Shown here one piece after another: positions 9,770 to 23,625 of a DNA stretch of 64,000 nucleotides (position 1 is the first letter of the stretch; each line of letters opens with the position of its first letter). The DNA comes from Halomonas sp. MCCC 1A13316 (GTDB lineage Bacteria; Pseudomonadota; Gammaproteobacteria; Pseudomonadales; Halomonadaceae). Under the pieces are notes generated by a model, which ran no database searches, was not told where the DNA came from, and saw only the letters and a list, made by a program, of their open reading frames with translations. The stretch lies in the NCBI RefSeq assembly GCF_014931605.1, contig NZ_CP053382.1, positions 4,092,001-4,156,000 on the forward strand, in the 5' to 3' direction. A program made the translations under genes and the position numbers.

Positions 9770-10130
9770 TCGTCAGTCTCCATATCTTGTATTCCGAATA
9801 TTCTTCATAACTATCTTAAAGCCTCTCTAAAGCAGAGATTGTGTGCCCCTGCCCCCAGGGTTGCAAGAGTGGTCATGGGCCCCCGCTCCGACGCTTGTCT
9901 CTGAAAAATCCAATCTGGCCAAATCGCCATCCCCTTCAGCTGTGAATCCTTCACTGACCTGCTGACAATGCAGGACAGCAAGGCGTAGCGAAGCTTAGTG
10001 ACGCCCGGCTTTTCTCCCGGAAGAAACACTGTACTTTCGGACAACAAGACAGGGCTTCGAAAGCAAAGGCCTGAACATGGTCATGGAATTTTGCCATGGC
10101 TTCACCTTGAAGAAATCCAAGAGGTGCCAG
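9770..10130. other. 361-bp intergenic region, no gene seen
   Basis: This divergent region between aroQ and the dehydrogenase is visibly less G+C-rich than its flanks. I see no convincing coding frame, tRNA or riboswitch. A GAGGTG ribosome site at 10121-10126 fixes the next gene's start. Promoters for both flanking genes must lie here, but none stands out. Confidence 0.5.
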
Positions 10131-10934
10131 ATGGACAAGACACGGTTGTCAGGAAAAAACTGCCTTATCACCGGTGCCGCACGCGGGATGGGTGCAGCTG
10201 TAGCAGAGCATTATGCCGAGCAGGGTGCCAATGTGTGCGTGGCGGACCTTAACCTTGAAGGTTGCGAGGAAGTCGTCAAACGAATTCTCGAGAGAGGAGG
10301 AAAGGCCATTGCGGTAAAGCTCAATGTAACGGACCGCGATCAGATGAAAGCGGCGGTCCAGGCTACCGTCGAAGCTTTCGGTAGCCTTAATGTCATGGTG
10401 AACAATGCCGGCATCAACAAGCCGCTGATGTTTCTGGATATTACAGAAGAAAATTGGCACCAGATCATGGACGTCAATGCACTGGGATGCTTGATTGGCA
10501 TGCAGGAAGCCGCCAAGCAAATGATAGAACAGGGCAAGGAGGACGGCCCCTACAAGATCATTAACGTCGGCTCCATCCTTTCCCGACAAGCCTTCGATGA
10601 TGTGGTTCCCTACTCTTGTAGCAAGCACGCCGTACTGGCCATGATCAATGGAGGTGCCAAGGCGCTGGTCGATCACAATATAACCGTCAATGGCTATGGC
10701 CCTGGCGTCGTACGTACCGAGCTGTGGGAGCAACTCGACAAGGACCTCGTCAGCATCGGCAAGTTCGACAAGCAGGGCCAGTCCATGGACGAACTTGCCG
10801 AGAAGATGATTCTGATGAAGCGCTATTCCTATCCGGAGGATGTGGTCGGCACGGCCTCCTTCCTGGCCAGCCCAGAATCGGATTACATGACGGGGCAGCT
10901 TCTGATGATTGACGGCGGCATGATTCTCCAGTGA
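10131..10934 (+). CDS. Short-chain dehydrogenase/reductase (acetoin/butanediol dehydrogenase-like)
   Basis: A 267-residue classical SDR. It shows TGAARGMG for NAD(P) binding (about 13-20), NNAG, the catalytic Ser in NVGSILS and YSCSK. It resembles meso-2,3-butanediol dehydrogenase/acetoin reductase and related polyol dehydrogenases; the true substrate is unknown. The ATG at 10131 is chosen for its GAGGTG site. Base composition is lower in G+C than most of the window. It is convergent with the fusion regulator that follows, with 21 bp between the stops. Confidence 0.82.
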   Translation: MDKTRLSGKNCLITGAARGMGAAVAEHYAEQGANVCVADLNLEGCEEVVKRILERGGKAIAVKLNVTDRDQMKAAVQATVEAFGSLNVMVNNAGINKPLMFLDITEENWHQIMDVNALGCLIGMQEAAKQMIEQGKEDGPYKIINVGSILSRQAFDDVVPYSCSKHAVLAMINGGAKALVDHNITVNGYGPGVVRTELWEQLDKDLVSIGKFDKQGQSMDELAEKMILMKRYSYPEDVVGTASFLASPESDYMTGQLLMIDGGMILQ

Positions 10935-10955: not shown

Positions 10956-12728
10956 TCAGTAGAGCCCTCTGTCTCGCATTACCCTATCGGCCCTGTCCTG
11001 CGCCATGGCCAGGGCCTTCTTGATGGAACGCCTGCCATCCAGCACCTCGAAAATCTCGTGCCCGGCGATGCTGATCACATCCGTAACGCCCGGCACCGGC
11101 GGGCGCGGCCATGCCTGCAGGATGTCCTTTCTTGCCATGTCATCCACGATCTCTATTAGCGGCGAAAGTCTCGTAACTTCCGGATCGCGGCTTACACTAT
11201 AACGTGGAGTCACCAAACTCCCATTGAGAATGTAAAGCTTGGACATGTTGGCCGATGTAAGGTGGCGTAGAGCTGTCCATACATCTTCGATACGCTCCTC
11301 TGCGAGATTGGCCGGTATGGCGAGTGCATAGCCTCCAATCGGCGTGATCACGCGGCCATGATTTCCAATTGGATGAGGAAGATATCCTGTCTTACCCCAA
11401 GCCGGGGACTTTCTGTCAAATTCGATGAGCGGCGCAAGAAGCGTATAGCAATATGCCATGCAGGCCTCACCCGTTGCATAAGACTGCGCTCGCTCGTACC
11501 AAGCCATACTGAGAATATTGGGCGGTGAATATTTCAAGATGTCCAACATATACTCGCAGGCCCGGTAGGCAGCATCCGACTGAAACATCGGCCGCAACTC
11601 TTCCCCGGACGCATGCTGGAAGTCATAGCCTCTTTCATTGCGACTTAGGTTGAGGATCGGCTGGCCGAACTTGGCCATCAGAAAGCTGAACGTATGGCCC
11701 AGTGGCGTGCCGCGTGCGGCATTCCAGGCAATGCCATACCGCCCTCTTGCGGGATCGTGCAGCCGCCTGGCCGCCTTGATCAGCTCCTCCGTCGTCGTAG
11801 GCGGCTCGAGCTGCGCCTCCTCGAGGATGTCTTTCCGGTAGCAGAGCAGCTCCGGCGTGGTCTGTAGGGGAATGCCGTATTGCCGCCCCGCGTATTGTGT
11901 ACTCTGCACCGCAACGGGGTGAAAGTCCGAGAGGTCGTAGGCATCGCGGCGAATGAAGCGGTCGAGGGGCAGTAGCAACCCTTTTGATGCCAGTTCACCG
12001 AACCAGGGCAGGTCGCAGGCAACGAGGTCGTAGCGAGATTTTGCCCGAGCGCCATTGTTTAGAACTGCCTCGAGAAGATCATCTATCGATCGTGCAGAGT
12101 TGTGGATTGCCAGGCCAAAGATCGACTCCAGCTGCTGCTTCAGATTATGCATGGCCATGAAAGTGGGATCGGCGTGGATGAGCCCACGCAATCCGCCTTT
12201 CAATTCGAGTCTTGCCGAAAGTACTGCCGGCGGAGATATGACTTGGCTCGTAGCGGCAGGGTCGTGAAAAATTTTTCGGCCAGAATCCGAGGCGGGATCT
12301 ACCCCGAACAGGGGGCCCAGCAGAGCCTTGATCCGGTGCGCATACGTCTCCCACTCTTCGATCATCAGGGAGGACGGGTGCAGCGAGACCGTTTTACCCG
12401 ATTTTGTCCTCGGTCGTGAAAGAATAAGGCCACGCGCCATGATGCTCTCTATCCCACGCTTGGCGGTGCCGTAAGAGAGCCCAGAGGCATCAGCAAGTGA
12501 GGTAGGCGTGGTCAGGCGGCCCGCCAGGTGGTTGCGCATGAGATGAAGCATCATGCGCATCTCACGGTAACCTTGCTTCATGGAAAGCGAACTTTCAGTC
12601 TCCTCCTCGAATTGCTCGATGAAGTCGATAAAGCGCGATAGCTCGGTGTTGGAGAGCTTCGGCATCGGTGTCTCGGACAGACTGTCGTAAGGGCCCTCCG
12701 GATGGCTCTCGTCGGTGAGGTCGCTCAT
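10956..12728 (-). CDS. Fusion regulator: winged helix plus MalE-type solute-binding domain
   Basis: A 590-residue protein without signal peptide or membrane segment. Residues 55-118 look like a winged helix (SLADASGLSYGTAKRGIESIM, then a basic wing RPRTKSGKT). Residues 170-575 match an extracellular solute-binding protein of the family-1/MalE type, including YDLVACDLPWFGELASKG and a YGIPLQTTPELLCYRKDIL hinge-region pattern. Such binding domains normally work in the periplasm, so this looks like a cytoplasmic one-component sensor that binds a sugar-like ligand. It lies beyond the hydroxyquinol operon on the same strand and may control it. Function is inferred from domains only. Confidence 0.8.
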   Translation of the reverse strand: MSDLTDESHPEGPYDSLSETPMPKLSNTELSRFIDFIEQFEEETESSLSMKQGYREMRMMLHLMRNHLAGRLTTPTSLADASGLSYGTAKRGIESIMARGLILSRPRTKSGKTVSLHPSSLMIEEWETYAHRIKALLGPLFGVDPASDSGRKIFHDPAATSQVISPPAVLSARLELKGGLRGLIHADPTFMAMHNLKQQLESIFGLAIHNSARSIDDLLEAVLNNGARAKSRYDLVACDLPWFGELASKGLLLPLDRFIRRDAYDLSDFHPVAVQSTQYAGRQYGIPLQTTPELLCYRKDILEEAQLEPPTTTEELIKAARRLHDPARGRYGIAWNAARGTPLGHTFSFLMAKFGQPILNLSRNERGYDFQHASGEELRPMFQSDAAYRACEYMLDILKYSPPNILSMAWYERAQSYATGEACMAYCYTLLAPLIEFDRKSPAWGKTGYLPHPIGNHGRVITPIGGYALAIPANLAEERIEDVWTALRHLTSANMSKLYILNGSLVTPRYSVSRDPEVTRLSPLIEIVDDMARKDILQAWPRPPVPGVTDVISIAGHEIFEVLDGRRSIKKALAMAQDRADRVMRDRGLY

Positions 12729-12811
12729 GTTCGCCTCGGCACGGGAGAAAACGAATACTCAACAATAGCGCCGCTTCGCTTATGCCAGCAAGCCAGCAAG
12801 AAATGTGGCGC

Positions 12812-13549
12812 TTAACTCCAGCCATCCAGGATCAGCCGGACGCCCAGCAGGATCAGCAGACCCAGGATGATCCGGAAAAACAGCTCACCGCTCAGCCGCT
12901 GTTGAATGATCAGCCCCAGACGCACTCCTAACCAGGCCACCGGAAACAGCATTAGCGCAACAGTAAGGTTCTCGACGTTCAACAGGCCGAGCATGCCATA
13001 GGGCACCAGCTTGACCAGGTTGATGGCGGCCAGGAAAACCACGGCGGTGGCAAGGAACTGCTCCCGGGTGAGTCTGCGTTGCAGTAGATAGAAATTGAGC
13101 GGCGGCCCACCAGCATGGGCGATGAAGCTGGTGAAGCCGGCGATACCACCACTCAGTCCGCCGACCCAGGTGGGCAGAATCCGGCCGCGGAAGGGCTTGA
13201 GCAACCCCCACAAGCCGAACAGGACCGAGAACACCCCAAGCAGTACCTTCAGCAGGTTCTCATCGAAGCGGCCATAGGTAAGGAAGCCGAGCGCCACCCC
13301 CAGCACCGCGGGGGGAAGCATCAGCCACAGCACACCTCCTATACGGTGGCGCCACCAGGCCTTGAGGCTGAATACATCCATTACGATCAGCAGCGGCAGC
13401 ATCACAGCCACGGCGAAGGCCGGACTGGCCTTCAGCGAGATAAGGGGTACCGCCACCACCCCCACACCGCCGGCGAAGCCCGATTTCGAGATGCCGGTAA
13501 TCAGCACGGCGATGATGATCAATGCAATGAACTGCCAGTCGTACACCAT
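12812..13549 (-). CDS. TauE/SafE-family permease
   Basis: The product has 245 residues and about eight hydrophobic segments, starting MVYDWQFIALIIIAVLITGISKSGF. The N-terminal GxSKSGFAGG and the mid-protein AGGIAGFTSFIAHAGGPP-like repeat are typical of TauE/SafE, a family linked to export or uptake of sulfite, sulfoacetate and other organic anions. It lies past the terminator of the hydroxyquinol operon, so it is probably its own unit. Substrate unknown. Confidence 0.85.
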   Translation of the reverse strand: MVYDWQFIALIIIAVLITGISKSGFAGGVGVVAVPLISLKASPAFAVAVMLPLLIVMDVFSLKAWWRHRIGGVLWLMLPPAVLGVALGFLTYGRFDENLLKVLLGVFSVLFGLWGLLKPFRGRILPTWVGGLSGGIAGFTSFIAHAGGPPLNFYLLQRRLTREQFLATAVVFLAAINLVKLVPYGMLGLLNVENLTVALMLFPVAWLGVRLGLIIQQRLSGELFFRIILGLLILLGVRLILDGWS

Positions 13550-13574
13550 GCCGCCCCCTGCTTTGGCACGTTAC

Positions 13575-13601
13575 AAAAAGGGGCCGTGACGATCACGGCC
13601 C
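13575..13601 (-). terminator. Rho-independent terminator of the hydroxyquinol operon
   Basis: Nine-bp arms GGGCCGTGA and TCACGGCCC (13581-13589 and 13593-13601) with a 3-nt loop. On the minus strand the stem is followed by a T run (13576-13580). It lies about 75 bp past the stop of the RutE-like gene. Confidence 0.85.
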
Positions 13602-13622
13602 AATCGGAGATTGCCATTGGCT

Positions 13623-13666
13623 CCCATGAGGAGAGCTCCTCATGGGCTTACGGGAGTCGCCTCCCG
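13623..13666. repeat. Two further perfect hairpins after the RutE-like gene
   Basis: The first has 11-bp arms CCCATGAGGAG and CTCCTCATGGG around AG (13623-13646); the second has arms CGGGAG and CTCCCG around TCGC (13651-13666). Neither has a T run. With the terminator they make three consecutive hairpins between the operon's last stop and its end. Confidence 0.7.
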
Positions 13667-13676
13667 AAAGTCGGCA

Positions 13677-14267
13677 TCACAGCACCTTGCAAACTTCTTC
13701 GAACGCGAAGCGCTCCTGACGCGGGAAGAGCGCCTCGGCATCCCCGTAGCCCAGGTTGCAGAGGAAGTTGCTCTTAACCGTGCCGTCCGGGAAGAAGGCT
13801 TCATCGACGGCGGCATTGTTGAAGCCGGACATCGGCCCTGCATCCAGGCCCAGCGCCCGAGCCGCCAGGATGAAGTAGCCGCCCTGGATCGAGCCGTTGC
13901 GGAAGGCCGTGGTGTGAATGAAGTCCGGTTTGCCCTCGAACAGCGACTTGGCCTCCTTGTTGTGGGAGAACATGCGCGGCAGGTGCTCGTGGAACTCGGT
14001 GTCGAAGCCCAGCACCGCGACCACCGGCGCCTTCATGGTCTTCTCCTGGTTGCCCGGCAGCAACGCGGGCTTTAGACGCTCCTTGGCTTCCTGGCTCCTG
14101 AGGAAGAGGATGCGGGTCGGCTGGCAGTTCATTGAGGTCGGGCCGAAGTGCATCAGGTGGTAGAGCTCGCGCAGGGTTTCGTCACTGACGTCACGGTCCT
14201 GCCAGACGTTATGGGTACGTGCCTCAGTGAACAGGGTCTCGACCGCCTTGTTGTCGATAACAGTCAT
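13677..14267 (-). CDS. RutE/HadB-like nitroreductase-family flavoprotein
   Basis: The product has 196 residues and the RutE pattern: a PTSMNCQPTRILFL stretch for FMN binding, AAFRNGSIQGGYFILAARALGLDAGPMSGF and a CNLGYGD C-terminal block. RutE reduces malonic semialdehyde; relatives reduce nitro groups or quinones. In this operon, next to hydroxyquinol dioxygenase, reduction of hydroxybenzoquinone back to hydroxyquinol is an attractive but unproven role. It is the last gene of the operon, 55 bp after the dioxygenase, with an AGAGGAAAG site. Confidence 0.8.
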   Translation of the reverse strand: MTVIDNKAVETLFTEARTHNVWQDRDVSDETLRELYHLMHFGPTSMNCQPTRILFLRSQEAKERLKPALLPGNQEKTMKAPVVAVLGFDTEFHEHLPRMFSHNKEAKSLFEGKPDFIHTTAFRNGSIQGGYFILAARALGLDAGPMSGFNNAAVDEAFFPDGTVKSNFLCNLGYGDAEALFPRQERFAFEEVCKVL

Positions 14268-14322
14268 TTCGCTTTCCTCTTGCTGGATGGTGTTGGCTGC
14301 AGAATGTCGTCTTGCAATGGGA

Positions 14323-15186
14323 CTAGCGGCTCGCTTCGAGGCCGAAGTCGTATGTCAAATGGCGGAAGGGGACTTCCATCGATCGTCCATCCGGTGCCTT
14401 TCCCGGCGGCAGCAGTTCGTACTCCCTGACCAGGGAATCCTTGACGCCGAAGACGGCATCGGAGTCGAGATAGGGATCGTTCTCGGCGAAGACCTGGGTC
14501 ACCAGAGTCTCGTAACCCTCCGCCATCAGCATGAAGTGCACGTGGGCAGGTCGATAAGGGTGGCGGCCGGTGATCTCCAGCATCTTGCCGACCGGTCCGT
14601 CGGTGGGAATCGGGTAGGGTGAGGGGGTTACCGTCCAGAAGGCATAGCGCCCTTGGTCATCGGTGGTGAACCTGGCCCGCAGCGAGGCACTCTCGAGCTC
14701 CTTCTGGACGTCGTAGAACCCTTCGCTGTCCGATTGCCAGACATCGACGACGACATTGGCCAGTGGCTCGCCGCGCTCGTTATGCACCCGGCCCTCTACG
14801 AAGAAGGGCTCCCCCTCGACGTTCCAGTCGATCGACTCGCCCTGGGCGGCCTGGGGCGGGTCGGCCACATAGAAGGGGCCCAGCACCGTGCTCTCGGAGA
14901 CCATCGGGTCAGAGGTATGATGATTGATGGCATCGACCAGCATGGTGACGCCCAGGGTGTCGGAGAGCAGGATGAACTCCTGACGCTTGTCGTCGCACAT
15001 CTGGCCAGTGCGGGTAAGGAAGTCGATGGCCTGGGTCCACTCCTGCTCGGTGGGCTCCACGTCACGAATGAAGGCGTGCAGGTGGGTGACCAGGCTGTTG
15101 AACACCTGCTTCAGGCGCTCGTCACGGCAGCCGGCGAACTGCTCGATCACCGCATCCGTGATGTTCTCGGCATTCAGGTTTCGCAT
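14323..15186 (-). CDS. Hydroxyquinol 1,2-dioxygenase (intradiol ring cleavage)
   Basis: A 287-residue intradiol dioxygenase with the N-terminal helical dimer domain of the catechol/hydroxyquinol class. Fe(III) ligands are Tyr158 (GFYD), Tyr191 (PSPYPIP), His215 and His217 (RPAHVHF), spaced as in catechol 1,2-dioxygenase. The ESTVLGPFYVADPP phrase and the adjacent maleylacetate reductase favour hydroxyquinol over catechol. It opens the ring to give maleylacetate. It starts 4 bp after the preceding stop, so translation is probably coupled. Confidence 0.88.
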   Translation of the reverse strand: MRNLNAENITDAVIEQFAGCRDERLKQVFNSLVTHLHAFIRDVEPTEQEWTQAIDFLTRTGQMCDDKRQEFILLSDTLGVTMLVDAINHHTSDPMVSESTVLGPFYVADPPQAAQGESIDWNVEGEPFFVEGRVHNERGEPLANVVVDVWQSDSEGFYDVQKELESASLRARFTTDDQGRYAFWTVTPSPYPIPTDGPVGKMLEITGRHPYRPAHVHFMLMAEGYETLVTQVFAENDPYLDSDAVFGVKDSLVREYELLPPGKAPDGRSMEVPFRHLTYDFGLEASR

Positions 15187-15190
15187 GGGG

Positions 15191-16093
15191 TCATTTCCTC
15201 TCGATGGCCGGCAGCCCGGAGAGGCGCTCGGTGTGGTGGATCGTGGCGATGTAGTCGTCCTCGCCGTGGCCCGTGCCGATCAGCGAGCTGTAGGCCTCGC
15301 GCATCTGGGCGGCCAGGGGTACGGCGATACCGTCCGCATGGGCACAGCCGAGGATCAGGTCCAAGTCCTTGGCCATCTGGGCGGCCGAGAAGGTGGAGGT
15401 GAAGTCGCGGTCCTTCAGCGGCTGGGTCTTGTACTTGACCATCGGCGAGCCCACGGCGCTGTCGGCCATCAGGTCCAGCATCGCCTCCCAGCCGATGTTG
15501 CCCTTGCGGGCCATCGCCAGAGCCTCGCCCATCATCCCGGCACTCACCGCGATCATCAGGTTGATCGCCAGCTTGGCGTAGCGCGCCTGCTCCTCGTCAC
15601 CGAGCCAGTACTGGGCCTTGGTGAAGGTGGCCATCACCGGCACGGCTTCCTCCAGGGCCTCGCGCGGCCCGGAGACCATGGCCGATAGGGTGCCGGATTC
15701 GGCGGCGACCGGGTTGCCCGACACCGGGCTGCGCAGATAGGCGATGCCTCGCGCCTCGGCGGCCTCGGCCACGCGAGCGGAGGCCTCGATGCTGACGGTG
15801 CTGGTCTCGATCAGTACGCTACCCGGCGCCATCGCCTCGATCAGCCCACCCGACCCCAGTGTCAGGCCCAGCAGCGCCCGATCATCGGGAATCGAGACGA
15901 AGACCAGGCGGCACGCCTCGACGGCGGAAGCCAGTTCATCGTGTGCCGTGATGCCGGCCTGCCCGGCCAGCGCCATCCGCTCGGTGCTGAGATCGAAGCC
16001 CTGGACGGTATAGCCGGCCGCGGCGATTCGTGTCGCCATGGGCAAGCCCAGCTTGCCCAGGCCAATCCAGGCTACCTTGGTGCTGATGGTCAT
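15191..16093 (-). CDS. NAD(P)-dependent beta-hydroxyacid dehydrogenase-like protein
   Basis: A 300-residue two-domain protein. The Rossmann motif GLGKLGLPMA (about 12-21) is followed by SPVSGNPVAAESGTL, the substrate-binding signature of 3-hydroxyisobutyrate and tartronate semialdehyde reductases, and by KLAINLMIA with the catalytic Lys. It overlaps the upstream amidohydrolase gene by 4 bp. Its substrate in this operon is unknown; the family oxidizes small beta-hydroxyacids or reduces the matching semialdehydes. Confidence 0.85.
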   Translation of the reverse strand: MTISTKVAWIGLGKLGLPMATRIAAAGYTVQGFDLSTERMALAGQAGITAHDELASAVEACRLVFVSIPDDRALLGLTLGSGGLIEAMAPGSVLIETSTVSIEASARVAEAAEARGIAYLRSPVSGNPVAAESGTLSAMVSGPREALEEAVPVMATFTKAQYWLGDEEQARYAKLAINLMIAVSAGMMGEALAMARKGNIGWEAMLDLMADSAVGSPMVKYKTQPLKDRDFTSTFSAAQMAKDLDLILGCAHADGIAVPLAAQMREAYSSLIGTGHGEDDYIATIHHTERLSGLPAIERK

Positions 16094-17454
16094 TGTGACG
16101 CCCCCTCTTGTTGGCGTGACTGAAGCTCGGCGTAGATGCGGTGTCCGGAGGCTGCCAGGTGGCCGATCCCCTCCTCGACGTCAGCCAGCAACTTGCCGTG
16201 TCGCTTGTGGAATTCTCCCGCCACCATGACGCTGTCGATGTTGGCCAGGCTCGCCTGCATGACCACGGTCGAGACCGGGTCGCTGACCGGCTGCATGTTC
16301 AGCCGACTGCTGTCCAGCAGCACGATGTCTGCCTGCTTGCCTGGGGTCAGGCTGCCGATGCGGTGCTCGAGCCCGAGGGCGCGGGCACCGTCGAGGGTGA
16401 TCCACTGAAGCGCTTCCCGTGTCCGGATCGTCGAGCTGTCGGGAATGCTGCCCTGCTCGCGCCGCGAAGCGGCGTTGTCCAGCGAGCGCTGCATGCCCAG
16501 CGCCATCCGGGCCACCGTGAACATGTCCCCGGAGATCACCGATTCGAGATCCACCCCCAGGGAGACGACGCCGCCGTGGCGGCGAACGTGGCCGGTTATC
16601 GGGAAGCCGTGCCCCTGGGTCATCTCGTTCTCGGGGGCGATGGAGAAGGTCACCCCCTTCTCGCAGAACCGCGCCAGTTGCTCGTCGCTGAGGCTCTGCC
16701 CGTGCACGATGTTGATGTCCGGCCCCAGGAGTCCCCTCTCCTCGATCACGTCCCAGCCACCGGGGGTGACCGCCTTGCCGCCGCCCTGGTGCATGGAGGC
16801 CACCAGGCCGAACTCCTTGGCCAATTCGAAATCGTGCAGAGTGACATCTAGGGTGGAGTAGTGCGGCCCGAGGATGGCCAGGCCCAGGGTCACGCGCCCC
16901 TCGCGTTCGCCCAGCGGGCCGGCGAGAAGCCGCTCGACCTCGCTGCGCGGATGCGGAATCTCGCTGAAGTGGGGTTGCCCCGGCTTGGGGTCCGGCTTGG
17001 GCGAGCCATGGAAGAACAGCGCCCGGATACCGGACTCCTCGAGCCCGCGAATCGCCGCATCGGTATGCTCGGGAGTGGGGTTGTTGTGACACCAGTCACC
17101 TAGGGTGGTGGTACCGCAGTTGAGCTGGTTGAGCGCCCCCATGCGGGTGGCGATATGGATGTCATCAGGGCTGAACAGGGTCGCCAGGCCGCGATGCACA
17201 TGGCCGAAATACTCGAGCAGCGTCCAGTTGGCGGCGACACCGCGCAGGGCCGTCTGCCAGGTATGCATATGGGCATTGACCAGCCCGGGGATCAGGATGC
17301 CACCCCGGCAGTCGACCAGCTCGGCACCCTCGGCGGGCAGGTCATGGCCAATCGCCAGGATACGGTCGTCTTCCACCAGCACCTGGCCATCGCGCAGGTC
17401 GCCGAGGTCGGGATCCATGGTGATCACGGTGGCATGGGTCAGCAGGGTCTTCAT
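16090..17454 (-). CDS. Atz/Trz-type metal-dependent amidohydrolase lacking the usual HxxE glutamate
   Basis: A 454-residue COG0402-type protein: small beta domain at both ends around a TIM barrel. Likely metal ligands are His62 and His64 (NAHMH), His222, His251 and Asp302. Deaminases of this group carry HxxE (or HxAE) at the third position, with Glu as the proton shuttle; here the sequence is MHQGGG, so the Glu is absent. It should hydrolyse a C-N or C-X bond of a ring or an amide, but a normal deaminase mechanism is doubtful. Both ends overlap neighbours by 4 bp, placing it firmly in the operon. Confidence 0.83.
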   Translation of the reverse strand: MKTLLTHATVITMDPDLGDLRDGQVLVEDDRILAIGHDLPAEGAELVDCRGGILIPGLVNAHMHTWQTALRGVAANWTLLEYFGHVHRGLATLFSPDDIHIATRMGALNQLNCGTTTLGDWCHNNPTPEHTDAAIRGLEESGIRALFFHGSPKPDPKPGQPHFSEIPHPRSEVERLLAGPLGEREGRVTLGLAILGPHYSTLDVTLHDFELAKEFGLVASMHQGGGKAVTPGGWDVIEERGLLGPDINIVHGQSLSDEQLARFCEKGVTFSIAPENEMTQGHGFPITGHVRRHGGVVSLGVDLESVISGDMFTVARMALGMQRSLDNAASRREQGSIPDSSTIRTREALQWITLDGARALGLEHRIGSLTPGKQADIVLLDSSRLNMQPVSDPVSTVVMQASLANIDSVMVAGEFHKRHGKLLADVEEGIGHLAASGHRIYAELQSRQQEGASQ

Positions 17455-18530
17455 GCGTCAGTCACCTCCCTTGATGCCGGTCGACGGCCGGCATGGGCAT
17501 CGCTCAGGAGGCGATGGATGCCGTCGGCCTCGATCTCGCGTGGGTTCCAATAGGGGTTGCTCGTGGCGATCTGGGTCGCCCGCTCGATATCGCTCTCCTG
17601 CAGGCCGATGTCAGCCAGGGCCAGGGGCGCCCCCACTGCGCGCGCCAGGTCATGGAGCCCGGCGGCTGGGTCTTCGCAGCCGAGAGCCCGGGCGATGCGC
17701 GACATCGCCTCCGGGGCGGCCCCGGCGTTGTAGGCCACGGCGTGGGGCAGCACGATGGTATGGGTCTCGGCATGGGGCAGGTCGAAGGAGCCGCCCAGGG
17801 TGTGGCAGAGCTTGTGATGCAGTGACATCCCGACAGAGCCGAGGCAGGCACCGCACAGCCAGGCGCCATAGAGCGCATCCGAACGCGCGGACTGGTTGGC
17901 CGGCTCCTCGGCGATCACCGGCAGGCTGCGCGCCAGTGCCGCAATGCCCTCCTCCGCCATCAGCGAGACCACCGGGTTGCGATCCTTGGCGTAGAGCGCC
18001 TCCACCGCATGGGCGATGGCATTGATGCCGCTGGTACCGGACATGCCGACTGGCAGACCGAGCGTCAGGTCGACGTCGTATAGCACCACCTCGGGCAGTA
18101 CCTCGAGGGTGCGCTGGGTCGTCTTGAGGCCGTCCCTGGTTTCCCCGAGGATCGGTGTCATCTCGGAGCCGGCGTAGGTCGTGGGGATCGCCACCTGGGG
18201 CAGGCCGGTCCGCAGGGCGATGGCCTTGCCGAGCCCGATGGTGGAGCCGCCGCCGATGGCCACGGTGCAATCCGCCTCGAGCTCCTCCGCGAGGCGCAGC
18301 GCCGCGTCGGTGACTTCGACCGGGGTATGCATCCTGGCCTCGGCGAAGAGCCCGGCCCCGAGCTCGCCCAACTGGGCGAGCACCTCACGGGCCTGACCTG
18401 CCTGCTCGGGCGTTGCCAGGACGAGTGCCCGGTGGCAGCCCAGCTCACGAACCTCGTCGGTGAGTCGGGACAGGGTTCCCTGGCCGAAAATGACACGTGA
18501 CGGCAGGCCATTGTAGATGAAGGGCATCAT
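17451..18530 (-). CDS. Maleylacetate reductase
   Basis: A 359-residue iron-alcohol-dehydrogenase-family protein. It has GGGSTIGLGKAIAL for NAD(P)H and the maleylacetate reductase hallmark LHHKLCHTLGGSFDLPHAE. It reduces maleylacetate to beta-ketoadipate with NAD(P)H, the step after hydroxyquinol cleavage. The start at the paired ATGs (18530) follows a GAGGA site; an open extension upstream has no family match. It lies 53 bp after the ABC ATPase and overlaps the amidohydrolase by 4 bp. Confidence 0.9.
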   Translation of the reverse strand: MMPFIYNGLPSRVIFGQGTLSRLTDEVRELGCHRALVLATPEQAGQAREVLAQLGELGAGLFAEARMHTPVEVTDAALRLAEELEADCTVAIGGGSTIGLGKAIALRTGLPQVAIPTTYAGSEMTPILGETRDGLKTTQRTLEVLPEVVLYDVDLTLGLPVGMSGTSGINAIAHAVEALYAKDRNPVVSLMAEEGIAALARSLPVIAEEPANQSARSDALYGAWLCGACLGSVGMSLHHKLCHTLGGSFDLPHAETHTIVLPHAVAYNAGAAPEAMSRIARALGCEDPAAGLHDLARAVGAPLALADIGLQESDIERATQIATSNPYWNPREIEADGIHRLLSDAHAGRRPASREVTDA

Positions 18531-18583
18531 GATGGTGTCCTCGTGCTTGCGTGGGAAGGTCCGGCGCGGGTCGCGTGGGCACA

Positions 18584-20158
18584 TCAGGCCGAGGCCACGG
18601 GGTCAGGCCCGCGGGCGTCCGTGACGTACTGTCCGGTGATGGCCTGGACCAGCTTGTCCTCGGATACCGCATCGCCGTCGAACTCTGCCGTTACCCGGCC
18701 GTCGTACATCGCGATGATGCGGTTGCTGACACCCAGCACCTCGGGCATTTCCGACGAGATCACCAGCACCGCATAGCCCGACCGCGCCAGCTCCTTGATC
18801 AGGGCATGGATCTCGGCCTTGGAGCCCACGTCGATGCCGCGGGTCGGCTCGTCCAGGATCAGCAGCTTGGGATGGGTATGCAGCCACTTGCCGATGACGA
18901 TCTTCTGCTGGTTGCCGCCACTGAGGTTGCCGACCTTCTGGCGCCAGCTGGGCGTCTTGATCTTCATGGCCTGCTGATACTTGTCGTATACGATCTTCTC
19001 TTCTCCGGTCTTCATGAAGCCCATGGAGGAGACGCTGCCAAGCGCCGAGAGGGTCATGTTGTCGCGACAGTTCATGCCGAGGATGAGGCCCTGATCCTTG
19101 CGGTCCTCCGGGACCAGGGCGATGCCCTTGACCACCGCATCGTGGCTGGAGCGGATCGTCTCGGCCTTGCCTTCGAGCAGAATTTCACCGGCCGATGGCT
19201 GACGCAGACCGAAGATCGTCTCGGCGACCTCGGAGCGGCCCGCCCCGACCAGACCGTACATGCCGACGATCTCACCCTTGCGAACGGTTAAGCTGACGTC
19301 CTCGAACACCTTGTCGACAGTGAGGTGACGCAGCTCCAACATCTTCTCGCCGAACTCGCTGGGCTTACTGGCATGATCGAGTTTGAGGGCTCTGCCGATC
19401 ATCAGCTTGGTGACCTCATCCTCGCTGGTGTCGGCCGTATTCAAGGTTCCGTTGTACTCGCCGTCACGCAGGACCGAGATGCGCTGGGAGAGGTGGAAGA
19501 TCTCGTCCATGCGGTGCGAGATGTAGACAATACCGACGCCCTGCTCCTGGAGATTGCGGATGATGTCGTAGAGCACCGGCTTCTCGTGATCGGTCAGTGA
19601 TGCCGTCGGCTCGTCGAAGACCACGATCCGGGGCGTGAAGACCAGGGCCCGAGCGATCTCCACCATCTGCTTCTTGGCGATGGAGAGGTTGCTGACCATG
19701 TCGCGGGAGCTGAAGGTACACTTGAGACGCTTGAGAATCTCGGTGCTGTCTGTGTGCAGCTTCTTCCAGTCGACGCGGTTGCCCCATTTCAGCGGCAGGC
19801 TGCCCAGGAAGATGTTCTCTGCCACCGACATTTCGGGGACCAACGACTGCTCCTGGTGAATCAGCACGATGCCGCTCTTCTTGGCCTGCTTGGGGTTCTC
19901 GAAGGACTTCTCCTTCCCCGCCAGGATGATCTTCCCTCCGTTGGGCTGATGCTTTCCGGCCAGCACCTTCATCAGAGTGGACTTGCCGGCGCCGTTCTCG
20001 CCCAGCAGGGCATGGACCTCGCCCGCCCGGACATCGAAGCTGACCTTGTTCAGGGCCACCACACCCGGAAACTTCTTGGTGATATCAATCAGCGAGAGTA
20101 CGGGGTTCGGGGAACTCGAACCGTGACCGGCGTTCCGGTTCATGGCTGCAGCGCTCAT
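18584..20158 (-). CDS. Ribose-family sugar ABC importer, double ATPase subunit
   Basis: The product has 524 residues and two ABC domains (about 20-255 and 265-505), as in RbsA/XylG/YtfR. The first has GENGAGKSTLMK (Walker A), the second LSGGNQQKIVIGKWL and DEPTRGIDVG. It powers import by the two permeases upstream. The ATG at 20158 overlaps the permease stop in an ATGA arrangement; an open frame beyond is the permease in another frame. Substrate unknown; the family imports pentoses, hexoses, inositol and sugar-like compounds. Confidence 0.93.
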   Translation of the reverse strand: MSAAAMNRNAGHGSSSPNPVLSLIDITKKFPGVVALNKVSFDVRAGEVHALLGENGAGKSTLMKVLAGKHQPNGGKIILAGKEKSFENPKQAKKSGIVLIHQEQSLVPEMSVAENIFLGSLPLKWGNRVDWKKLHTDSTEILKRLKCTFSSRDMVSNLSIAKKQMVEIARALVFTPRIVVFDEPTASLTDHEKPVLYDIIRNLQEQGVGIVYISHRMDEIFHLSQRISVLRDGEYNGTLNTADTSEDEVTKLMIGRALKLDHASKPSEFGEKMLELRHLTVDKVFEDVSLTVRKGEIVGMYGLVGAGRSEVAETIFGLRQPSAGEILLEGKAETIRSSHDAVVKGIALVPEDRKDQGLILGMNCRDNMTLSALGSVSSMGFMKTGEEKIVYDKYQQAMKIKTPSWRQKVGNLSGGNQQKIVIGKWLHTHPKLLILDEPTRGIDVGSKAEIHALIKELARSGYAVLVISSEMPEVLGVSNRIIAMYDGRVTAEFDGDAVSEDKLVQAITGQYVTDARGPDPVASA

Positions 20159-21114
20159 ATGCTGACTCCTTTGCTGGCATGGACATTGAGCCGCTGGTCG
20201 ATGATCAGCACCGAGATGAGGATGACGCCGAGAATGACCAGCACGTAGAAGGCCGGTACCTGCATCAGGTTCATGCCGTTGCGCAGGATGCCGATGGCCA
20301 GCACGCCGCCCAGGGTGCCGGTGATGCTGCCGAATCCGCCCGTCAGCTTGGTGCCGCCAAGCACCACTGCCGTGATAGTCCACAATTCATAGTCACGGCC
20401 CAAGTTCGGCGTGGCGGCCCCCATCTGGGTCGCCAGGAGCACCCCGGCGAGGGCAGCGAAGCCCCCCACGATGATGAAGTTGATCATCATGTGACGGCCG
20501 ATGCGGATGCCCGCATCCAGGGCGGCTTCGGGGTTGCCACCCACGGCAAAGGTATTACGTCCATGGCCGGTCTTCTTCAGCACCAGATGCATCACCAAGG
20601 TGCAGAGGAGGAAGATGATGGCGAGTACGGGAAACGGCCCGATCGAGGCGGTCCCGAAGTCGGAGAAGGCGAAATTGGTGGCGTAGAAGGACTGCTCTTC
20701 GGTGTAGACGAAGATGAGGCCACGAACACCGATCATGGCCCCTAGGGTCACGATGAAGGCATTGACGCCGGTCTTCCAGACGATCAGGCCATTGATAGCA
20801 CCCAGCACAAGCCCCGATGCCAGAGCGGCCATGACCGCGATGGTAATACCGTAGTCCTGAAGGCCGACCGACAGCGATGCCGCCAGTCCCAGGACGGCAC
20901 CCACTGAGAGATCGATGTTGCCGTTGATCATCACGTAGGTCATGCCCAGTGCGATCAGCCCGATGGTCGAAGTCTGGACAAGGATATTGCTCAGGTTTCC
21001 GACGGAGAGAAAGTACTCCGACATGACGCTGAAGAAGACGGTAATGGCTATGACAAATACCCAGATGGGCTGGATAAAGCCACTGCCTTTAAGAAAATTC
21101 TTCATGTTAATCAT
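20155..21114 (-). CDS. Ribose-family ABC importer permease
   Basis: A 319-residue RbsC-type permease with about eight to ten membrane segments. It contains GNIDLSVGAVLGLAA and the family's GGxxAxxxSGI-like cytoplasmic loop (VGGNPEAALDAGI). It begins 13 bp after the first permease gene. Starts at 21114 or 21105 are both possible; upstream codons have no hydrophobic or family match. It pairs with the other permease to form the transmembrane channel. Confidence 0.92.
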   Translation of the reverse strand: MINMKNFLKGSGFIQPIWVFVIAITVFFSVMSEYFLSVGNLSNILVQTSTIGLIALGMTYVMINGNIDLSVGAVLGLAASLSVGLQDYGITIAVMAALASGLVLGAINGLIVWKTGVNAFIVTLGAMIGVRGLIFVYTEEQSFYATNFAFSDFGTASIGPFPVLAIIFLLCTLVMHLVLKKTGHGRNTFAVGGNPEAALDAGIRIGRHMMINFIIVGGFAALAGVLLATQMGAATPNLGRDYELWTITAVVLGGTKLTGGFGSITGTLGGVLAIGILRNGMNLMQVPAFYVLVILGVILISVLIIDQRLNVHASKGVSI

Positions 21115-21127
21115 GTTGATCACCGGT

Positions 21128-22138
21128 TCAGGAGTGAGTCGTGAACAGACGCTTGCGCTTGTTGGCAAGGTCCAGCCACACCGCCAGGATGATGATCACC
21201 CAGGTGACGAGCCATTGGGTGTAATAGGGGTAGCCCAGCAGCAGCAAGCCATTCTGGATGAAGCCCAGGATCAGTACCCCGATGATCGTCTTCCAGACAC
21301 TCCCTGCTCCGCCCAGCAGACTAGTGCCCCCGAGAATGATCCCGGCCAGCACCAGCAATTCGTAGCCCTGCCCGACGTTGTTCTGTGAGCCCATGACTCG
21401 CGATCCCAGCACCAGCGCTGCACAGGCCACGCAGAAGGCCGAGATCAGATAGGTACTGAATACACACCAGTTCTTGCGGATACCGGAATAGACGGCGGCG
21501 GCCGGGTTACCGCCGACTGCGAAGATTCGGCGACCATAGCTGGTATAGGACATGACGACCTGCACGACGATCGCCAGCAAGGCAAAGAGGATTACCGGGA
21601 CCGCGATACCCAGCACGTAGCCTCGTCCGAAGAAGGCGAACCAGGTGTCGCTCTGGTTGGCAATGTCAACGTTCTTACCGCCACTGTAGATCAGCACCAG
21701 TCCTTGGATCGCCGACAGCATCGCCAGTGTAACGATCAGCGAATTCAGCCGCATGAAACCGACCAGGAAGCCGTTGACGGCGCCGATCAGCAACGTAAGG
21801 GCGAACATCAGAATGATAGCGCCGGCCGGTCCGATCTTGTCATGCAGATCGACGACCAGCACCGTCGAGAAGGAGAGCATCGACCCGACAGAGAGGTCCA
21901 GATTACCGCCGATGATGACCACCGTAACACCCACGGCAATAATGCCGATAATCGAGGCTTGGCGCACCACTGTCATGATATTTGACTGGGAAATAAACTG
22001 TTCGGAGAACAGCGAAAAAGCAAACATGCAGATAAGGAAGAAGACCAGGATACCCTGAGCGGAAAGGAAACTCAGGAGACCCGCCTTATACTTCTTGTTC
22101 AGCATGATGGCTTGTTTACTTTGTTCTACAGAAGCCAT
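21128..22138 (-). CDS. Ribose-family ABC importer permease
   Basis: A 336-residue membrane protein related to the next permease, with GGNLDLSVGSMLSFS and VGGNPAAAVYSGI. The ATG at 22138 has an AGGTGA site 5 nt upstream. The charged N-terminus (KQAIMLNKKYK) precedes the first membrane segment. A 236-bp gap with two hairpins separates it from the binding protein gene. Confidence 0.92.
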   Translation of the reverse strand: MASVEQSKQAIMLNKKYKAGLLSFLSAQGILVFFLICMFAFSLFSEQFISQSNIMTVVRQASIIGIIAVGVTVVIIGGNLDLSVGSMLSFSTVLVVDLHDKIGPAGAIILMFALTLLIGAVNGFLVGFMRLNSLIVTLAMLSAIQGLVLIYSGGKNVDIANQSDTWFAFFGRGYVLGIAVPVILFALLAIVVQVVMSYTSYGRRIFAVGGNPAAAVYSGIRKNWCVFSTYLISAFCVACAALVLGSRVMGSQNNVGQGYELLVLAGIILGGTSLLGGAGSVWKTIIGVLILGFIQNGLLLLGYPYYTQWLVTWVIIILAVWLDLANKRKRLFTTHS

Positions 22139-22201
22139 GGTACTCACCTATTTTGGCGCTACTGACTGAAGGCCGGAATATTTACGTTGCAGTCGCCGCC
22201 C

Positions 22202-22312
22202 CGTTGGCATGCCTGAGGCACGCCAACGAATCGAGGGACTTTCAGACCATTCGTCATGACCAACGGAGTGTCGCTTTCTGCTGTCCGCAACGATCATCCT
22301 CGGTCGTTGCGG
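22202..22312. repeat. Two strong hairpins between binding-protein and permease genes
   Basis: Hairpin 1 (22202-22228): arms CGTTGGC and GCCAACG with four more inner pairs (TGCC/GGCA). Hairpin 2 (22285-22312): arms CCGCAACGA and TCGTTGCGG around 10 nt. They lie in the 236-bp gap between the binding-protein stop and the first permease. Such hairpins often protect binding-protein mRNA or lower expression of the genes after it. Confidence 0.7.
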
Positions 22313-22374
22313 CGCCATTGGCCTGGATACGCAGGATGGCACGAGTTCCTTTCATGCCCCGAGACTTGCGAGAT

Positions 22375-23313
22375 TTAGAACACGGGCTTGTCGAACTCGG
22401 CCAGATTATCGGCAGTAATCTTGGGGGTCTCGAAGAAGTTCATCTTCGGCACCTCTTCACCTGCCAGGACATCGAGTGCCGTCTGGAGCGCCGCTTCCGC
22501 GTCATCGACCGGTGACTGATAGATGGAACCGTAGTACTCGCCACGCTCGATGGCCTCGTAGCCCACGGCGAAATTGGTGGCACCGATGAACACGATCTCC
22601 TCGGCACGGCCGGCGCTCTTGGCGGCATTCAGGGCACCGACCCCCATGTTGTCATCGCCGGCATAGACTCCGTCGATGTCATCGTACTTGGTGAGGAAGT
22701 TTTCCATGACCCGCTGAGCCTTCTCACGGTTCCAGTCGGCGGGCTGGGTCTCCACGAGCTCGACTCCGGGGCATGCCTCGGCCAGTTTTTCCTCGAAGCC
22801 TTGGGCACGCTCCATGGCGGTGGTATAACCCGGCTGGCCGGCGATCTGTACGATTCGCCCCTCGCCCTCGAGGGCATCGCACATCATCTCGGCGGAGGAG
22901 GCCCCCTGCTGGACATTGTCGGGGCCCGAGAAGGCCGCAATATAGTCAAGGCCCGCTTCGGCGATCTTGGAATTGGTCACCACAACGGGGATGCCAGCCT
23001 GGTGGGCCTGGCGGATGGCTGGGATCACCGCCTGACCATTGGTCGGCCAGATGATGATGGCATCGACACGCTGCTGGATGAGGTTGCGCACCTGGCCGAT
23101 CTGGCGGGCAACATCGCCGCCGGCATCGAGCACGACGACGTCGACATTGCCATGCTTGTCGGCTGCTTCCTCGAAGGCGCTTTCATAGGTCGTCTGGTAG
23201 CTGTCGACGCCGACATTATTCTGGGTAATACCGATTCGATAGGTGGATTCTGCGTGGGCAAGCCCCACAGAAAGCATCATGACACTAGTGGCTAGCGCTG
23301 TTTTGTACATCAT
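22375..23313 (-). CDS. Periplasmic sugar-type binding protein of the ABC importer
   Basis: A 312-residue type-I periplasmic binding protein. The signal peptide ends near VGLAHAES; the mature protein shows the RbsB-like fold with DAIIIWPTNGQAVIPAI and YAGDDNMGVGAL. First gene of the nine-gene minus-strand operon. It should capture the unknown substrate that the operon uses. The ligand cannot be read from sequence; the family includes ribose, xylose, inositol and autoinducer-2 binders. Confidence 0.92.
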   Translation of the reverse strand: MMYKTALATSVMMLSVGLAHAESTYRIGITQNNVGVDSYQTTYESAFEEAADKHGNVDVVVLDAGGDVARQIGQVRNLIQQRVDAIIIWPTNGQAVIPAIRQAHQAGIPVVVTNSKIAEAGLDYIAAFSGPDNVQQGASSAEMMCDALEGEGRIVQIAGQPGYTTAMERAQGFEEKLAEACPGVELVETQPADWNREKAQRVMENFLTKYDDIDGVYAGDDNMGVGALNAAKSAGRAEEIVFIGATNFAVGYEAIERGEYYGSIYQSPVDDAEAALQTALDVLAGEEVPKMNFFETPKITADNLAEFDKPVF

Positions 23314-23543
23314 CTTCTCACCTGCTTTGTTGTAGTACTTGCTGTTTGGGTTTTACTCAAGGGAGTTATTCAACGTTCGTGAAGCTTATGGCTGGCACTT
23401 GTTCTCCAGCAACGCGGCCAAGTGGTAGAAATGGCCAATTTGGTTATTTTTATCTCCGGATGCAGGCGAAGGGGTTGTTTCAACATTCTGCCAAGGAAAG
23501 CCCCGCAAGCTAAAAAACTGTGCTCGGATAAAGGATTGGCAAC
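23314..23543. other. Promoter-side region of the ABC/hydroxyquinol operon, no gene seen
   Basis: A stretch of about 230 bp, visibly richer in A+T than its flanks, between the operon's first gene and the glnE terminator. The operon promoter must lie here. A GTTCG half-site occurs near 23375 but no full PcaR-type palindrome is present. No convincing coding frame. Confidence 0.45.
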
Positions 23544-23583
23544 GAAAAAAGAAAACGCCCCGCTCAAGGAAATTGGCAGGGCG
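23544..23583 (-). terminator. Rho-independent terminator of glnE
   Basis: Seven-bp stem (23556-23562 with 23577-23583, one G-U pair) followed on the minus strand by a T-rich run (23544-23555). It lies about 45 bp past the glnE stop. Confidence 0.7.
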
Positions 23584-23625
23584 CAGCAAAAAGTGAAATG
23601 TAGCTTTGCGATGGATAAAAGCGGA

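What the first reader, a model, noticed from the sequence alone, without database searches (positions are those of the whole stretch)
13677..23313. Nine-gene operon coupling a ribose-family importer to hydroxyquinol cleavage
Binding protein, two permeases and an ATPase are followed, with 4-bp overlaps or short gaps, by maleylacetate reductase, an amidohydrolase, a beta-hydroxyacid-type dehydrogenase, hydroxyquinol 1,2-dioxygenase and a RutE-like flavoenzyme, ending at a strong terminator. Hydroxyquinol modules are usually tied to resorcinol, nitrophenol or chlorophenol hydroxylases; none is here. A sugar-type importer suggests that the starting compound is a polyhydroxylated or sugar-like, perhaps nitrogen-bearing, molecule converted to hydroxyquinol by hydrolysis, dehydration or oxidation.
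Basis: partly seen in the sequence, partly recalled or inferred. Interest (0 to 1): 0.8.

Follow-up and report, generated by a model that had tools for sequence, protein, structure and literature searches.

The report
Sugar-importer-fed hydroxyquinol ring-cleavage regulon
A bacterium related to salt-loving Halomonas carries a conserved gene set that seems to take up a sugar-like compound and break it down through an aromatic ring, with its own unusual switch protein; the starting compound is not yet known.

Summary
The nine genes are real and in the stated order. In halomonads they are one unit: of 201 sampled genomes of the family, 28 hold the dioxygenase ortholog and 29 the binding protein, 28 in common; the exception looks like a deletion remnant. 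The unit is larger than reported: a TauE-like exporter, a 590-aa protein (10956-12728) and a polyol-type SDR (10077-10934) follow. The 590-aa protein, annotated in relatives as a solute-binding protein, looks like a transcription factor: predicted winged helix plus sugar-type binding domain. A palindrome, AAAT-N2-CCA-N3-TGG-N2-ATTT, lies upstream of the binding-protein gene and, weaker, of the SDR gene; related sites occur in most but not all relatives that carry this protein. The trunk hydroxyquinol -> maleylacetate -> 3-oxoadipate is well supported; the steps before it are not. No hydroxylase is in the block. In Rhodobacterales the orthologous importer, SDR and regulator sit beside a different enzyme set, so one ligand may have two fates. 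The amidohydrolase lacks the deaminase glutamate and is paired with several lineages of intradiol dioxygenase. Best guess: a cyclic polyol is oxidised and aromatised to hydroxyquinol; unproven. New variant of a known kind.

The parts
23429..23449 (.). predicted operator 1 (palindrome AAATNNCCANNNTGGNNATTT, 0 mismatches), about 116 bp upstream of the binding-protein gene
   Evidence: only site with up to 2 mismatches, 0.02 expected; conserved in halomonads
22375..23313 (-). CUT2 periplasmic binding protein (SBP)
   Evidence: Peripla_BP_4 205.5 bits; nearest solved 2ioy, 4rsm
22190..22240 (-). intercistronic hairpin between SBP and permease genes
   Evidence: z -4.1; sequence
21128..22147 (-). 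CUT2 permease 1
   Evidence: BPD_transp_2
20155..21168 (-). CUT2 permease 2 (start mechanical, TTG)
   Evidence: BPD_transp_2
18584..20110 (-). CUT2 double-domain ATPase (start by alignment)
   Evidence: only match at E<=1e-90 in own genome
17451..18584 (-). maleylacetate reductase (MAR); true start probably near 18530
   Evidence: 3jzd, 3w5s, 3hl0 at 428-437 bits (3w5s and 3hl0 named maleylacetate reductase)
16090..17454 (-). PRK08204-type amidohydrolase (AH), no HxxE glutamate
   Evidence: model pLDDT 91.6; fold match
15191..16093 (-). beta-hydroxyacid dehydrogenase family oxidoreductase (HIBD)
14323..15186 (-). hydroxyquinol 1,2-dioxygenase (HQD)
   Evidence: 3n9t PnpC and 1tmx; 14 of 15 checked positions identical
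13677..14267 (-). RutE/TcpB-like FMN oxidoreductase, probable hydroxybenzoquinone reductase
   Evidence: TcpB-like position in Variovorax RA8; PMC4264193 passages
13581..13601 (-). intrinsic terminator
12812..13549 (-). TauE/SafE-like membrane exporter, conserved next gene
   Evidence: protein 10; conserved
10956..12728 (-). predicted regulator: N-terminal winged helix plus SBP_bac_1 domain, no signal peptide seen
10077..10934 (+). SDR dehydrogenase of acetoin-reductase/L-iditol-2-dehydrogenase type (below cut-offs)
   Evidence: conserved partner
9904..9924 (.). possible operator 2 (3 mismatches), about 150 bp upstream of the SDR ORF
   Evidence: alone not significant; a site at the same place in 21 of 28 halomonad loci, 27 of which hold the SDR
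1..437 (-). BKACE, 3-oxoadipate:acetyl-CoA acetyltransferase (gene runs off the window edge)
   Evidence: 498 bits against a cut-off of 350

Best explanation
A regulon for uptake and breakdown of one polyhydroxylated compound, most likely a cyclic polyol. The compound binds the CUT2 binding protein and is imported by two permeases and the ATPase. Inside, the SDR oxidises a hydroxyl; the amidohydrolase and the beta-hydroxyacid-type dehydrogenase carry the product on to hydroxyquinol by hydrolysis or elimination plus redox. The RutE/TcpB-like flavoenzyme reduces hydroxybenzoquinone back to hydroxyquinol. The dioxygenase opens the ring, MAR reduces maleylacetate to 3-oxoadipate, and BKACE (or CoA transferase and thiolase) finishes. 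A winged-helix/solute-binding-domain protein senses the ligand and acts at a CCA-N3-TGG palindrome upstream of the SBP and SDR genes. Shown by sequence: gene families, linkage, conservation of the palindrome. Inferred: ring-cleavage chemistry from homology, reductase role from context, regulator-operator pairing from co-occurrence. Guess: identity of the substrate, order and chemistry of the AH and HIBD steps. Rough odds: trunk 0.85, regulator and operator 0.7, cyclic polyol 0.4.
For: HQD's nearest solved relatives are hydroxyquinol enzymes, above catechol enzymes (275 against 133 bits), with iron ligands and 10 of 11 recalled selectivity positions kept. MAR nearest to solved MARs. BKACE over its cut-off at the window edge and within the locus in several relatives. 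Unit conserved in halomonads, Marinobacterium and Skermanella. An SDR follows in 27 of 28 named halomonad loci and sits inside the operon in Marinobacterium and Skermanella. The extended palindrome, with at most 1 mismatch, lies upstream of SBP in 27 of 28 halomonad and 2 of 2 Marinobacterium loci, and no site with 2 or fewer mismatches occurs in the 50 other AH loci. The regulator co-occurs with SBP and SDR in Rhodobacterales that lack the hydroxyquinol genes, where a TPP/lipoyl complex and an aldehyde dehydrogenase would fit cleavage of a diketone made by SDRs. A Sinorhizobium MAR-HQD cluster with a regulator of this family has dehydrogenases whose best NCBIfam names are inositol 2-dehydrogenase and scyllo-inosose 3-dehydrogenase, far below cut-off, the latter tied with threonine dehydrogenase. 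In G013 ATPase end, enzymes and regulator start appear lost together.
Against: No enzyme in the window's block is of a known dehydratase family, yet making hydroxyquinol from a neutral deoxycyclitol needs two dehydrations. Other AH loci use TTT-type, LIV-type or a distant CUT2 importer (ATPase about 45%, SBP about 30% identity), which need not carry a polyol. SBP lacks the equivalents of both ribose-contacting Asp residues of 2ioy (Ser and Thr in the alignment; the contacts are recalled). 24 of 50 other AH loci have no HQD at 40% identity or more, some on short contigs. The regulator model has mean pLDDT 57.5 and the winged helix is below Pfam cut-offs. The bare core [CG]CA-N3-TGG turns up in 29% of random 333-bp stretches of the same loci, so its presence in 37 of 39 SBP upstreams is weaker than it looks; regulator homologs in L183, L130, L184 and L196 have no site by the forms tried, and the strict form also occurs at unrelated places in L070 and L096. 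Operator 2 in the window is not significant alone.
Confidence: 0.48

Rival explanations
1. The imported compound is already aromatic, for example an aminophenol-type compound, an acylated phenol or an aryl glycoside. The amidohydrolase removes nitrogen or a side group from the ring hydrolytically, as AtzA-type enzymes do on triazines, giving hydroxyquinol or its quinone, which the RutE-like enzyme reduces.
Against: All 81 AHs aligned have Gly where the deaminase HxxE Glu stands in 7ww2. It does not explain the polyol-type SDR, the sugar-type sensor domain or the Rhodobacterales enzyme set fed by an orthologous importer.
Confidence: 0.28
2. An ordinary hydroxyquinol pathway whose hydroxylase lies elsewhere in the genome; the importer brings the aromatic precursor and AH/HIBD handle a side chain.
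For: Eight long PF01494 matches (E 3.8e-11 or better) exist in the genome, and one could be a resorcinol-type hydroxylase. In Bosea vaviloviae two flavin/FAD-dependent oxidoreductase genes lie about 2-6 kb upstream of the cluster.
Against: None of the eight is within about 57 kb of the block and HpaB_N is absent. In one search no further recurrent gene lies between SBP and SDR in halomonad loci, antisense ORFs aside. Two hydroxylase-linked modules seen in annotated plasmids keep the hydroxylase beside MAR and HQD.
Confidence: 0.13
3. The dioxygenase and MAR act on a substituted hydroxyquinol or another triol, and AH hydrolyses the ring-cleavage product rather than making the dioxygenase substrate.
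For: Position 108 (1tmx numbering) is Leu where 1tmx has Phe. AH-superfamily enzymes that act on lactones and ring-cleavage products are known (recalled: sulfomuconolactone hydrolase, LigI, LigY).
Against: MAR is a close relative of ordinary MARs and a BKACE for 3-oxoadipate is nearby, so unsubstituted maleylacetate is expected; hydroxyquinol cleavage needs no lactone hydrolase (recalled).
Confidence: 0.1

Closest known systems
Hydroxyquinol modules of the chlorophenol type (tcpXABCD; compare the Variovorax RA8 cluster, L074)
   Same: MAR, HQD and a RutE-like enzyme at the quinone-reductase (TcpB) place (gene order of tcp recalled)
   Different: No TcpA/TcpX hydroxylase; has CUT2 importer, AH, HIBD, SDR and another regulator
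Resorcinol/gamma-resorcylate and nitrophenol hydroxyquinol pathways (recalled; MAR 3w5s, PnpC 3n9t)
   Same: HQD and MAR are of the same families
   Different: No resorcinol or nitrophenol hydroxylase in the block; AH is Amidohydro_1/PRK08204, not the Amidohydro_2 type recalled for resorcylate decarboxylase
CUT2 sugar/polyol importers (RbsABC and polyol-binding relatives)
   Same: Whole architecture and nearest solved SBPs
   Different: None of the NCBIfam sugar-specific cut-offs is reached; linked to ring-cleavage genes
SgrR-type regulators (recalled: winged helix plus SBP_bac_5)
   Same: Winged helix (here predicted) joined to a solute-binding-protein domain
   Different: Domain is SBP_bac_1 of the sugar type; linked to a catabolic unit and its own palindrome
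Quinate/shikimate to protocatechuate catabolism (recalled)
   Same: Would share the logic of oxidising and dehydrating an alicyclic polyol to an aromatic ring
   Different: Hydroxyquinol, not protocatechuate; different enzymes; here only a hypothesis

Membership tests
hydroxyquinol 1,2-dioxygenase | closest to solved hydroxyquinol enzymes rather than catechol enzymes | tested here: met
   275 and 274 bits for PnpC and 1tmx, 133 for the best catechol enzyme
hydroxyquinol 1,2-dioxygenase | iron ligands Y164, Y197, H221, H223 and selectivity residues of 1tmx | tested here: met
   14 of 15 identical, F108 is Leu; residue list recalled
hydroxyquinol 1,2-dioxygenase | activity on hydroxyquinol | not testable with these tools
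   needs enzyme assay
maleylacetate reductase | close sequence relation to solved maleylacetate reductases | tested here: met
hydroxylase-fed hydroxyquinol pathway | hydroxylase gene (PF01494 or HpaB type) in the cluster | tested here: not met
   other hydroxylase families were not searched genome-wide
CUT2 importer | Peripla_BP_4, BPD_transp_2 pair and double ABC ATPase | tested here: met
AtzA/ADA-type hydrolytic deaminase | metal ligands HxH, His, His, Asp | tested here: met
   H62, H64, H222, H251 in 81 of 81, D302 in 80 of 81
AtzA/ADA-type hydrolytic deaminase | HxxE glutamate after the strand-5 His | tested here: not met
   Gly at 225 in 81 of 81; HLAE in 7ww2
RutE, malonic semialdehyde reductase | NCBIfam cut-off | tested here: met
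   297 against 152 bits
RutE, malonic semialdehyde reductase | RutABCD pyrimidine genes alongside | tested here: not met
   none among the scanned neighbours
TcpB-type quinone reductase | quinone reductase activity | not testable with these tools
   only gene context supports it
SgrR-type regulator | N-terminal winged helix | tested here: inconclusive
   predicted H75-82, H86-98, E102-106, E114-118 at pLDDT about 78-85; MarR_2 only below cut-off in the Skermanella homolog
SgrR-type regulator | SBP_bac_5 domain | tested here: not met
   domain is SBP_bac_1
inositol (iol) catabolism | IolG/IolE/IolD enzymes in the block | tested here: not met
   family scans of the block and neighbours

The most novel reading that the evidence does not exclude
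Bacteria of several orders degrade an alicyclic polyol by turning it into an aromatic ring, hydroxyquinol, which is then cleaved; an importer, SDRs and a winged-helix/SBP_bac_1 regulator form a portable front end that is wired either to this aromatising route (halomonads, Marinobacterium, Skermanella) or to a TPP-dependent cleavage route (Rhodobacterales). The PRK08204 amidohydrolase would be the aromatising enzyme, with chemistry not yet known in its superfamily.
Probability: 0.3. Interest if true: 0.82.

Novelty: new variant of a known kind. Interest (0 to 1): 0.6.

Why it matters
Hydroxyquinol is usually seen as a node for pollutant and lignin-derived aromatics (recalled). Here it is wired to a sugar-type importer, a polyol-type dehydrogenase and a sugar-type sensor domain, which suggests that it may also serve catabolism of non-aromatic or sugar-like compounds. 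It gives an amidohydrolase family of unknown function (PRK08204) a pathway place that can be tested, names a candidate regulator family with a predicted operator, and offers a natural comparison: an orthologous importer and regulator with two different enzyme sets, which narrows the substrate.

Tried and rejected
Dehydroquinase II (9320-9769) as a pathway enzyme: it is the only PF01220 gene in the genome, so more likely housekeeping; kept as a side note because a Rm41 HQD cluster also holds one. Ribose as ligand: SBP lacks the aligned Asp residues (contacts recalled). Rfam: no match at gathering scores in the window. Promoter scan of 11500-24500: 4 sites found, 3.2 expected. Malonic semialdehyde as substrate of the RutE-like enzyme: no Rut genes among the neighbours scanned. 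Sulfonate degradation, suggested by TauE: no such gene among those scanned; not searched further. Mycosporines, benzoxazinoids, calystegines and aminocyclitols were considered from memory as substrates; none could be tested. Literature: searches (0 papers; 22, 20 listed; 3; 15; 0; 3; 7, 6 listed) listed nothing that reads as work on this operon or on cyclitol-to-hydroxyquinol catabolism; regulator searches (1 paper; 1,451 papers with 3 of 4 terms, 10 listed, none of these with the term SBP_bac_1) gave nothing on winged-helix/SBP_bac_1 fusions. They cover open-licence PMC papers only, and I saw listings. Passages alone were read in PMC11467972 (chemical, not enzymatic, dehydration of inosose to a tetrahydroxybenzene and of HMF to 1,2,4-benzenetriol) and PMC4264193. 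Caveats: in script 49 many genes are unnamed dots; counts come from scripts 30, 72, 98, 117, 128, 133 and 137. In one search permease 2 was hidden by an overlap filter; it is shown. L083 was dropped from the 333-bp upstream set because its upstream stretch was incomplete. The dioxygenases of the tree were picked by me, not sampled, and the tree warns of long branches.

Full report
Observation. The nine genes are present in the stated order on the - strand, 23313 to 13677, with the stated families. HQD is closest to solved hydroxyquinol dioxygenases (PnpC 3n9t, 275 bits; 1tmx, 274 bits) and further from catechol enzymes (best 133 bits); on the alignment, 14 of 15 checked positions in 1tmx numbering are identical, including the four iron ligands, with Phe108 replaced by Leu (the list of positions is recalled). 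MAR matches solved maleylacetate reductases at 428-437 bits. A hairpin lies between the SBP and permease genes and a terminator after the ninth gene.

One unit in halomonads. In 201 genomes sampled from the family, 40 have an HQD-like match at E <= 1e-60; 28 of them, the window's own included, carry an ortholog of 76-100% identity, and the next matches are at 55% or less. The 27 other orthologous loci were fetched: 27 of 27 carry SBP, permease, ATPase, MAR, AH, HIBD, HQD and the RutE-like gene, and 26 of 27 also TauE and the 590-aa gene, the exception ending at a contig edge. Ten of the 16 lower-identity matches listed were fetched as a control: none has AH, HIBD or this importer (one 29% ATPase-like match in L063 aside); five have MAR and four a RutE-like gene. 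The SBP ortholog occurs in 29 of the 201 genomes, the same 28 plus G013. In G013 the SBP and permease genes remain, but one 515-aa ORF matches the ATPase at its start and the 590-aa protein at its end, so that what lies between appears deleted; the SDR remains. These genomes are related, so the counts are not independent events.

A larger unit. A scan of named genomes with an AH alignment found 459 relatives, of which the best 80 were kept; several are the same assemblies as in the family sample. In 28 halomonad loci HQD, MAR, HIBD, CUT2 and the RutE-like gene are present in 28 of 28; TauE, the 590-aa gene and an SDR (50% identity or more) in 27 of 28; in Marinobacterium all are present in 2 of 2. 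In Marinobacterium and in Skermanella rosea an SDR stands inside the importer operon, and Skermanella adds a ThuA-domain gene and BKACE. The window's SDR resembles acetoin reductase and L-iditol 2-dehydrogenase, below their cut-offs; the Skermanella BKACE is over the cut-off for 3-oxoadipate:acetyl-CoA acetyltransferase, and such a gene lies over the left edge of the window.

The operator. In the window AAATNNCCANNNTGGNNATTT occurs at 23429-23449 without mismatch, where 0.02 sites with up to two mismatches are expected. With intact core and at most one mismatch it lies 127-167 bp before the SBP match in 27 of 28 halomonad loci (the 28th, L083, has an incomplete upstream) and in 2 of 2 Marinobacterium loci; in the 50 other AH loci there is no site with two or fewer mismatches and 6 scattered ones with three. 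A second site upstream of the SDR gene, at 9904-9924, has three mismatches and is not significant alone (0.73 expected); but a site with at most three mismatches lies at that place in 21 of 28 halomonad loci, 27 of which hold the SDR. The bare core [CG]CA-N3-TGG is present within 333 bp upstream of SBP in 37 of 39 loci, the window, 27 halomonads, 2 Marinobacterium, Skermanella and 8 loci of the second route below, of which 6 have it; yet it is present in 29% of random 333-bp stretches of the same loci, so this form says little by itself. The strict form [AT]TCCA-N3-TGGA[AT] occurs exactly once in each of five of the eight second-route stretches of 18-22 kb; by position these are the SBP upstream sites. 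It also occurs once in the Sinorhizobium B11 locus, whose regulator is of 33-34% identity, but not near its regulator gene's start, and at unrelated places in L070 and L096; no site of the forms tried was found in L184, L196, L183 and L130, although these carry regulator homologs.

Two enzyme sets, one front end. In 398 genomes sampled from the phylum the SBP ortholog occurs in 6, the own genome included. The other five (SBP 68-72% identity) carry the regulator (43-48%) and at least one SDR but no HQD, AH or MAR in 19-19.5 kb; instead an M24-family gene, E1-alpha and E1-beta genes in 5 of 5, an E2 gene in 4 of 5 and an aldehyde dehydrogenase gene in 3 of 5, the fetched stretch ending before that place in the others. 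Three Rhodobacterales plasmid loci read in annotated form have the same set. Among plasmids the SBP ortholog occurs in 19 records: Skermanella, and 18 of Rhodobacterales by name, of which I read three. I infer that one ligand may have two alternative fates, the second by thiamine-dependent cleavage; the M24 gene's only NCBIfam match at E <= 1e-30 is the lyase DddP, far below cut-off.

The enzymes elsewhere. In Bradyrhizobium, Tardiphaga, Bosea and Azorhizobium, MAR-AH-HIBD-HQD is mostly followed by a GlcD-like FAD oxidase, a CUT2 importer and YciI, beside a LysR or an RbsR-like LacI gene. That importer is distant from the window's (ATPase about 45%, SBP about 30%), while the enzymes are at 52-66%, so a CUT2 importer may have been joined to these enzymes twice. 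Of the 50 AH loci outside halomonads and Marinobacterium, 26 have HQD at 40% or more, 19 a CUT2 ATPase, 18 both, and 20 a TctC-type binding protein; some of these contigs are short. On a tree of 46 dioxygenases that I picked, the 28 AH-linked ones need 6 changes, at least 4 on well-supported branches (the tree warns of long branches): AH has been paired with intradiol dioxygenases repeatedly.

The RutE-like enzyme. It passes the 'malonic semialdehyde reductase' cut-off, but its 59% relative in Variovorax RA8 lies between a flavin reductase/HpaB-type monooxygenase pair and MAR-HQD, the place of TcpB, which PMC4264193 calls a quinone reductase (passages). I infer a hydroxybenzoquinone reductase.

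Substrate. A neutral deoxyinositol could give hydroxyquinol by one oxidation and two dehydrations (my own bookkeeping); chemical dehydration of inosose to a tetrahydroxybenzene is in print (PMC11467972, passages). Support is circumstantial: a polyol-type SDR, sugar-type importer and sensor domain, LacI genes in some relatives, and a Sinorhizobium MAR-HQD cluster with dehydrogenases nearest to inositol enzymes though far below cut-off. Against it, no known dehydratase is in the block. An aminocyclitol or a phenolic amine remains possible.

Verdict. Confirmed observation; interpretation partly supported. A new variant of hydroxyquinol catabolism with a candidate regulator family and operator, and an unknown substrate.

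Noticed in passing
L195-L199, L184-L186: Rhodobacterales and other genomes carry an orthologous importer, SDR and regulator module beside M24 and E1/E2 dehydrogenase-complex genes (aldehyde dehydrogenase in most) instead of hydroxyquinol genes.
   Followed up: yes
window 10956-12728 and L070:2584-4260: A family annotated 'extracellular solute-binding protein' that looks like winged-helix/SBP_bac_1 regulators; 799 plasmid records have a match, only 34 over 80% or more of the length, so many of the rest may be plain binding proteins.
   Followed up: partly
L187 and L188 (Sinorhizobium sp. B11): MAR-HQD cluster with SDR, zinc-dependent dehydrogenases, Gfo/Idh/MocA, two YciI genes, ABC importer genes and a regulator of the same family; no hydroxylase annotated in the stretch read.
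   Followed up: partly
L073 (S. meliloti Rm41 pRM41A 96975-119823): HQD-MAR cluster with type II dehydroquinase, enolase-like, NTF2-like, sugar isomerase-like and FAD oxidoreductase genes, next to pca genes; no hydroxylase annotated.
   Followed up: no
L064, L065, L066, L069: Second halomonad dioxygenase type (42-45% to HQD) with a RutE-like gene; in L065 also TRAP, TauE-like and old-yellow-enzyme-like ORFs, read by eye; no MAR match.
   Followed up: no
L228:6958-8505: Probable deletion remnant: ORF that begins as the CUT2 ATPase and ends as the regulator.
   Followed up: yes
L113, L123, L130, L133: Mesorhizobium and Kaistia: AH near a deeply divergent dioxygenase, FAA-hydrolase and YciI genes, close to malonate genes.
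   Followed up: no
L121, L129, L140, L150, L157: AH with TctC-type genes, HIBD-like matches (29-31%) and GMC oxidoreductase, without HQD; Rieske oxygenase and amidase in several, by cluster membership.
   Followed up: no
window 9320-9769: Only type II dehydroquinase gene of the genome lies just past the SDR; in two relatives (L037, L041) it lies between glnE and the SBP gene.
   Followed up: partly
L050:808-2576: The regulator gene matches in two pieces that overlap slightly, possibly a frameshift or assembly error.
   Followed up: no
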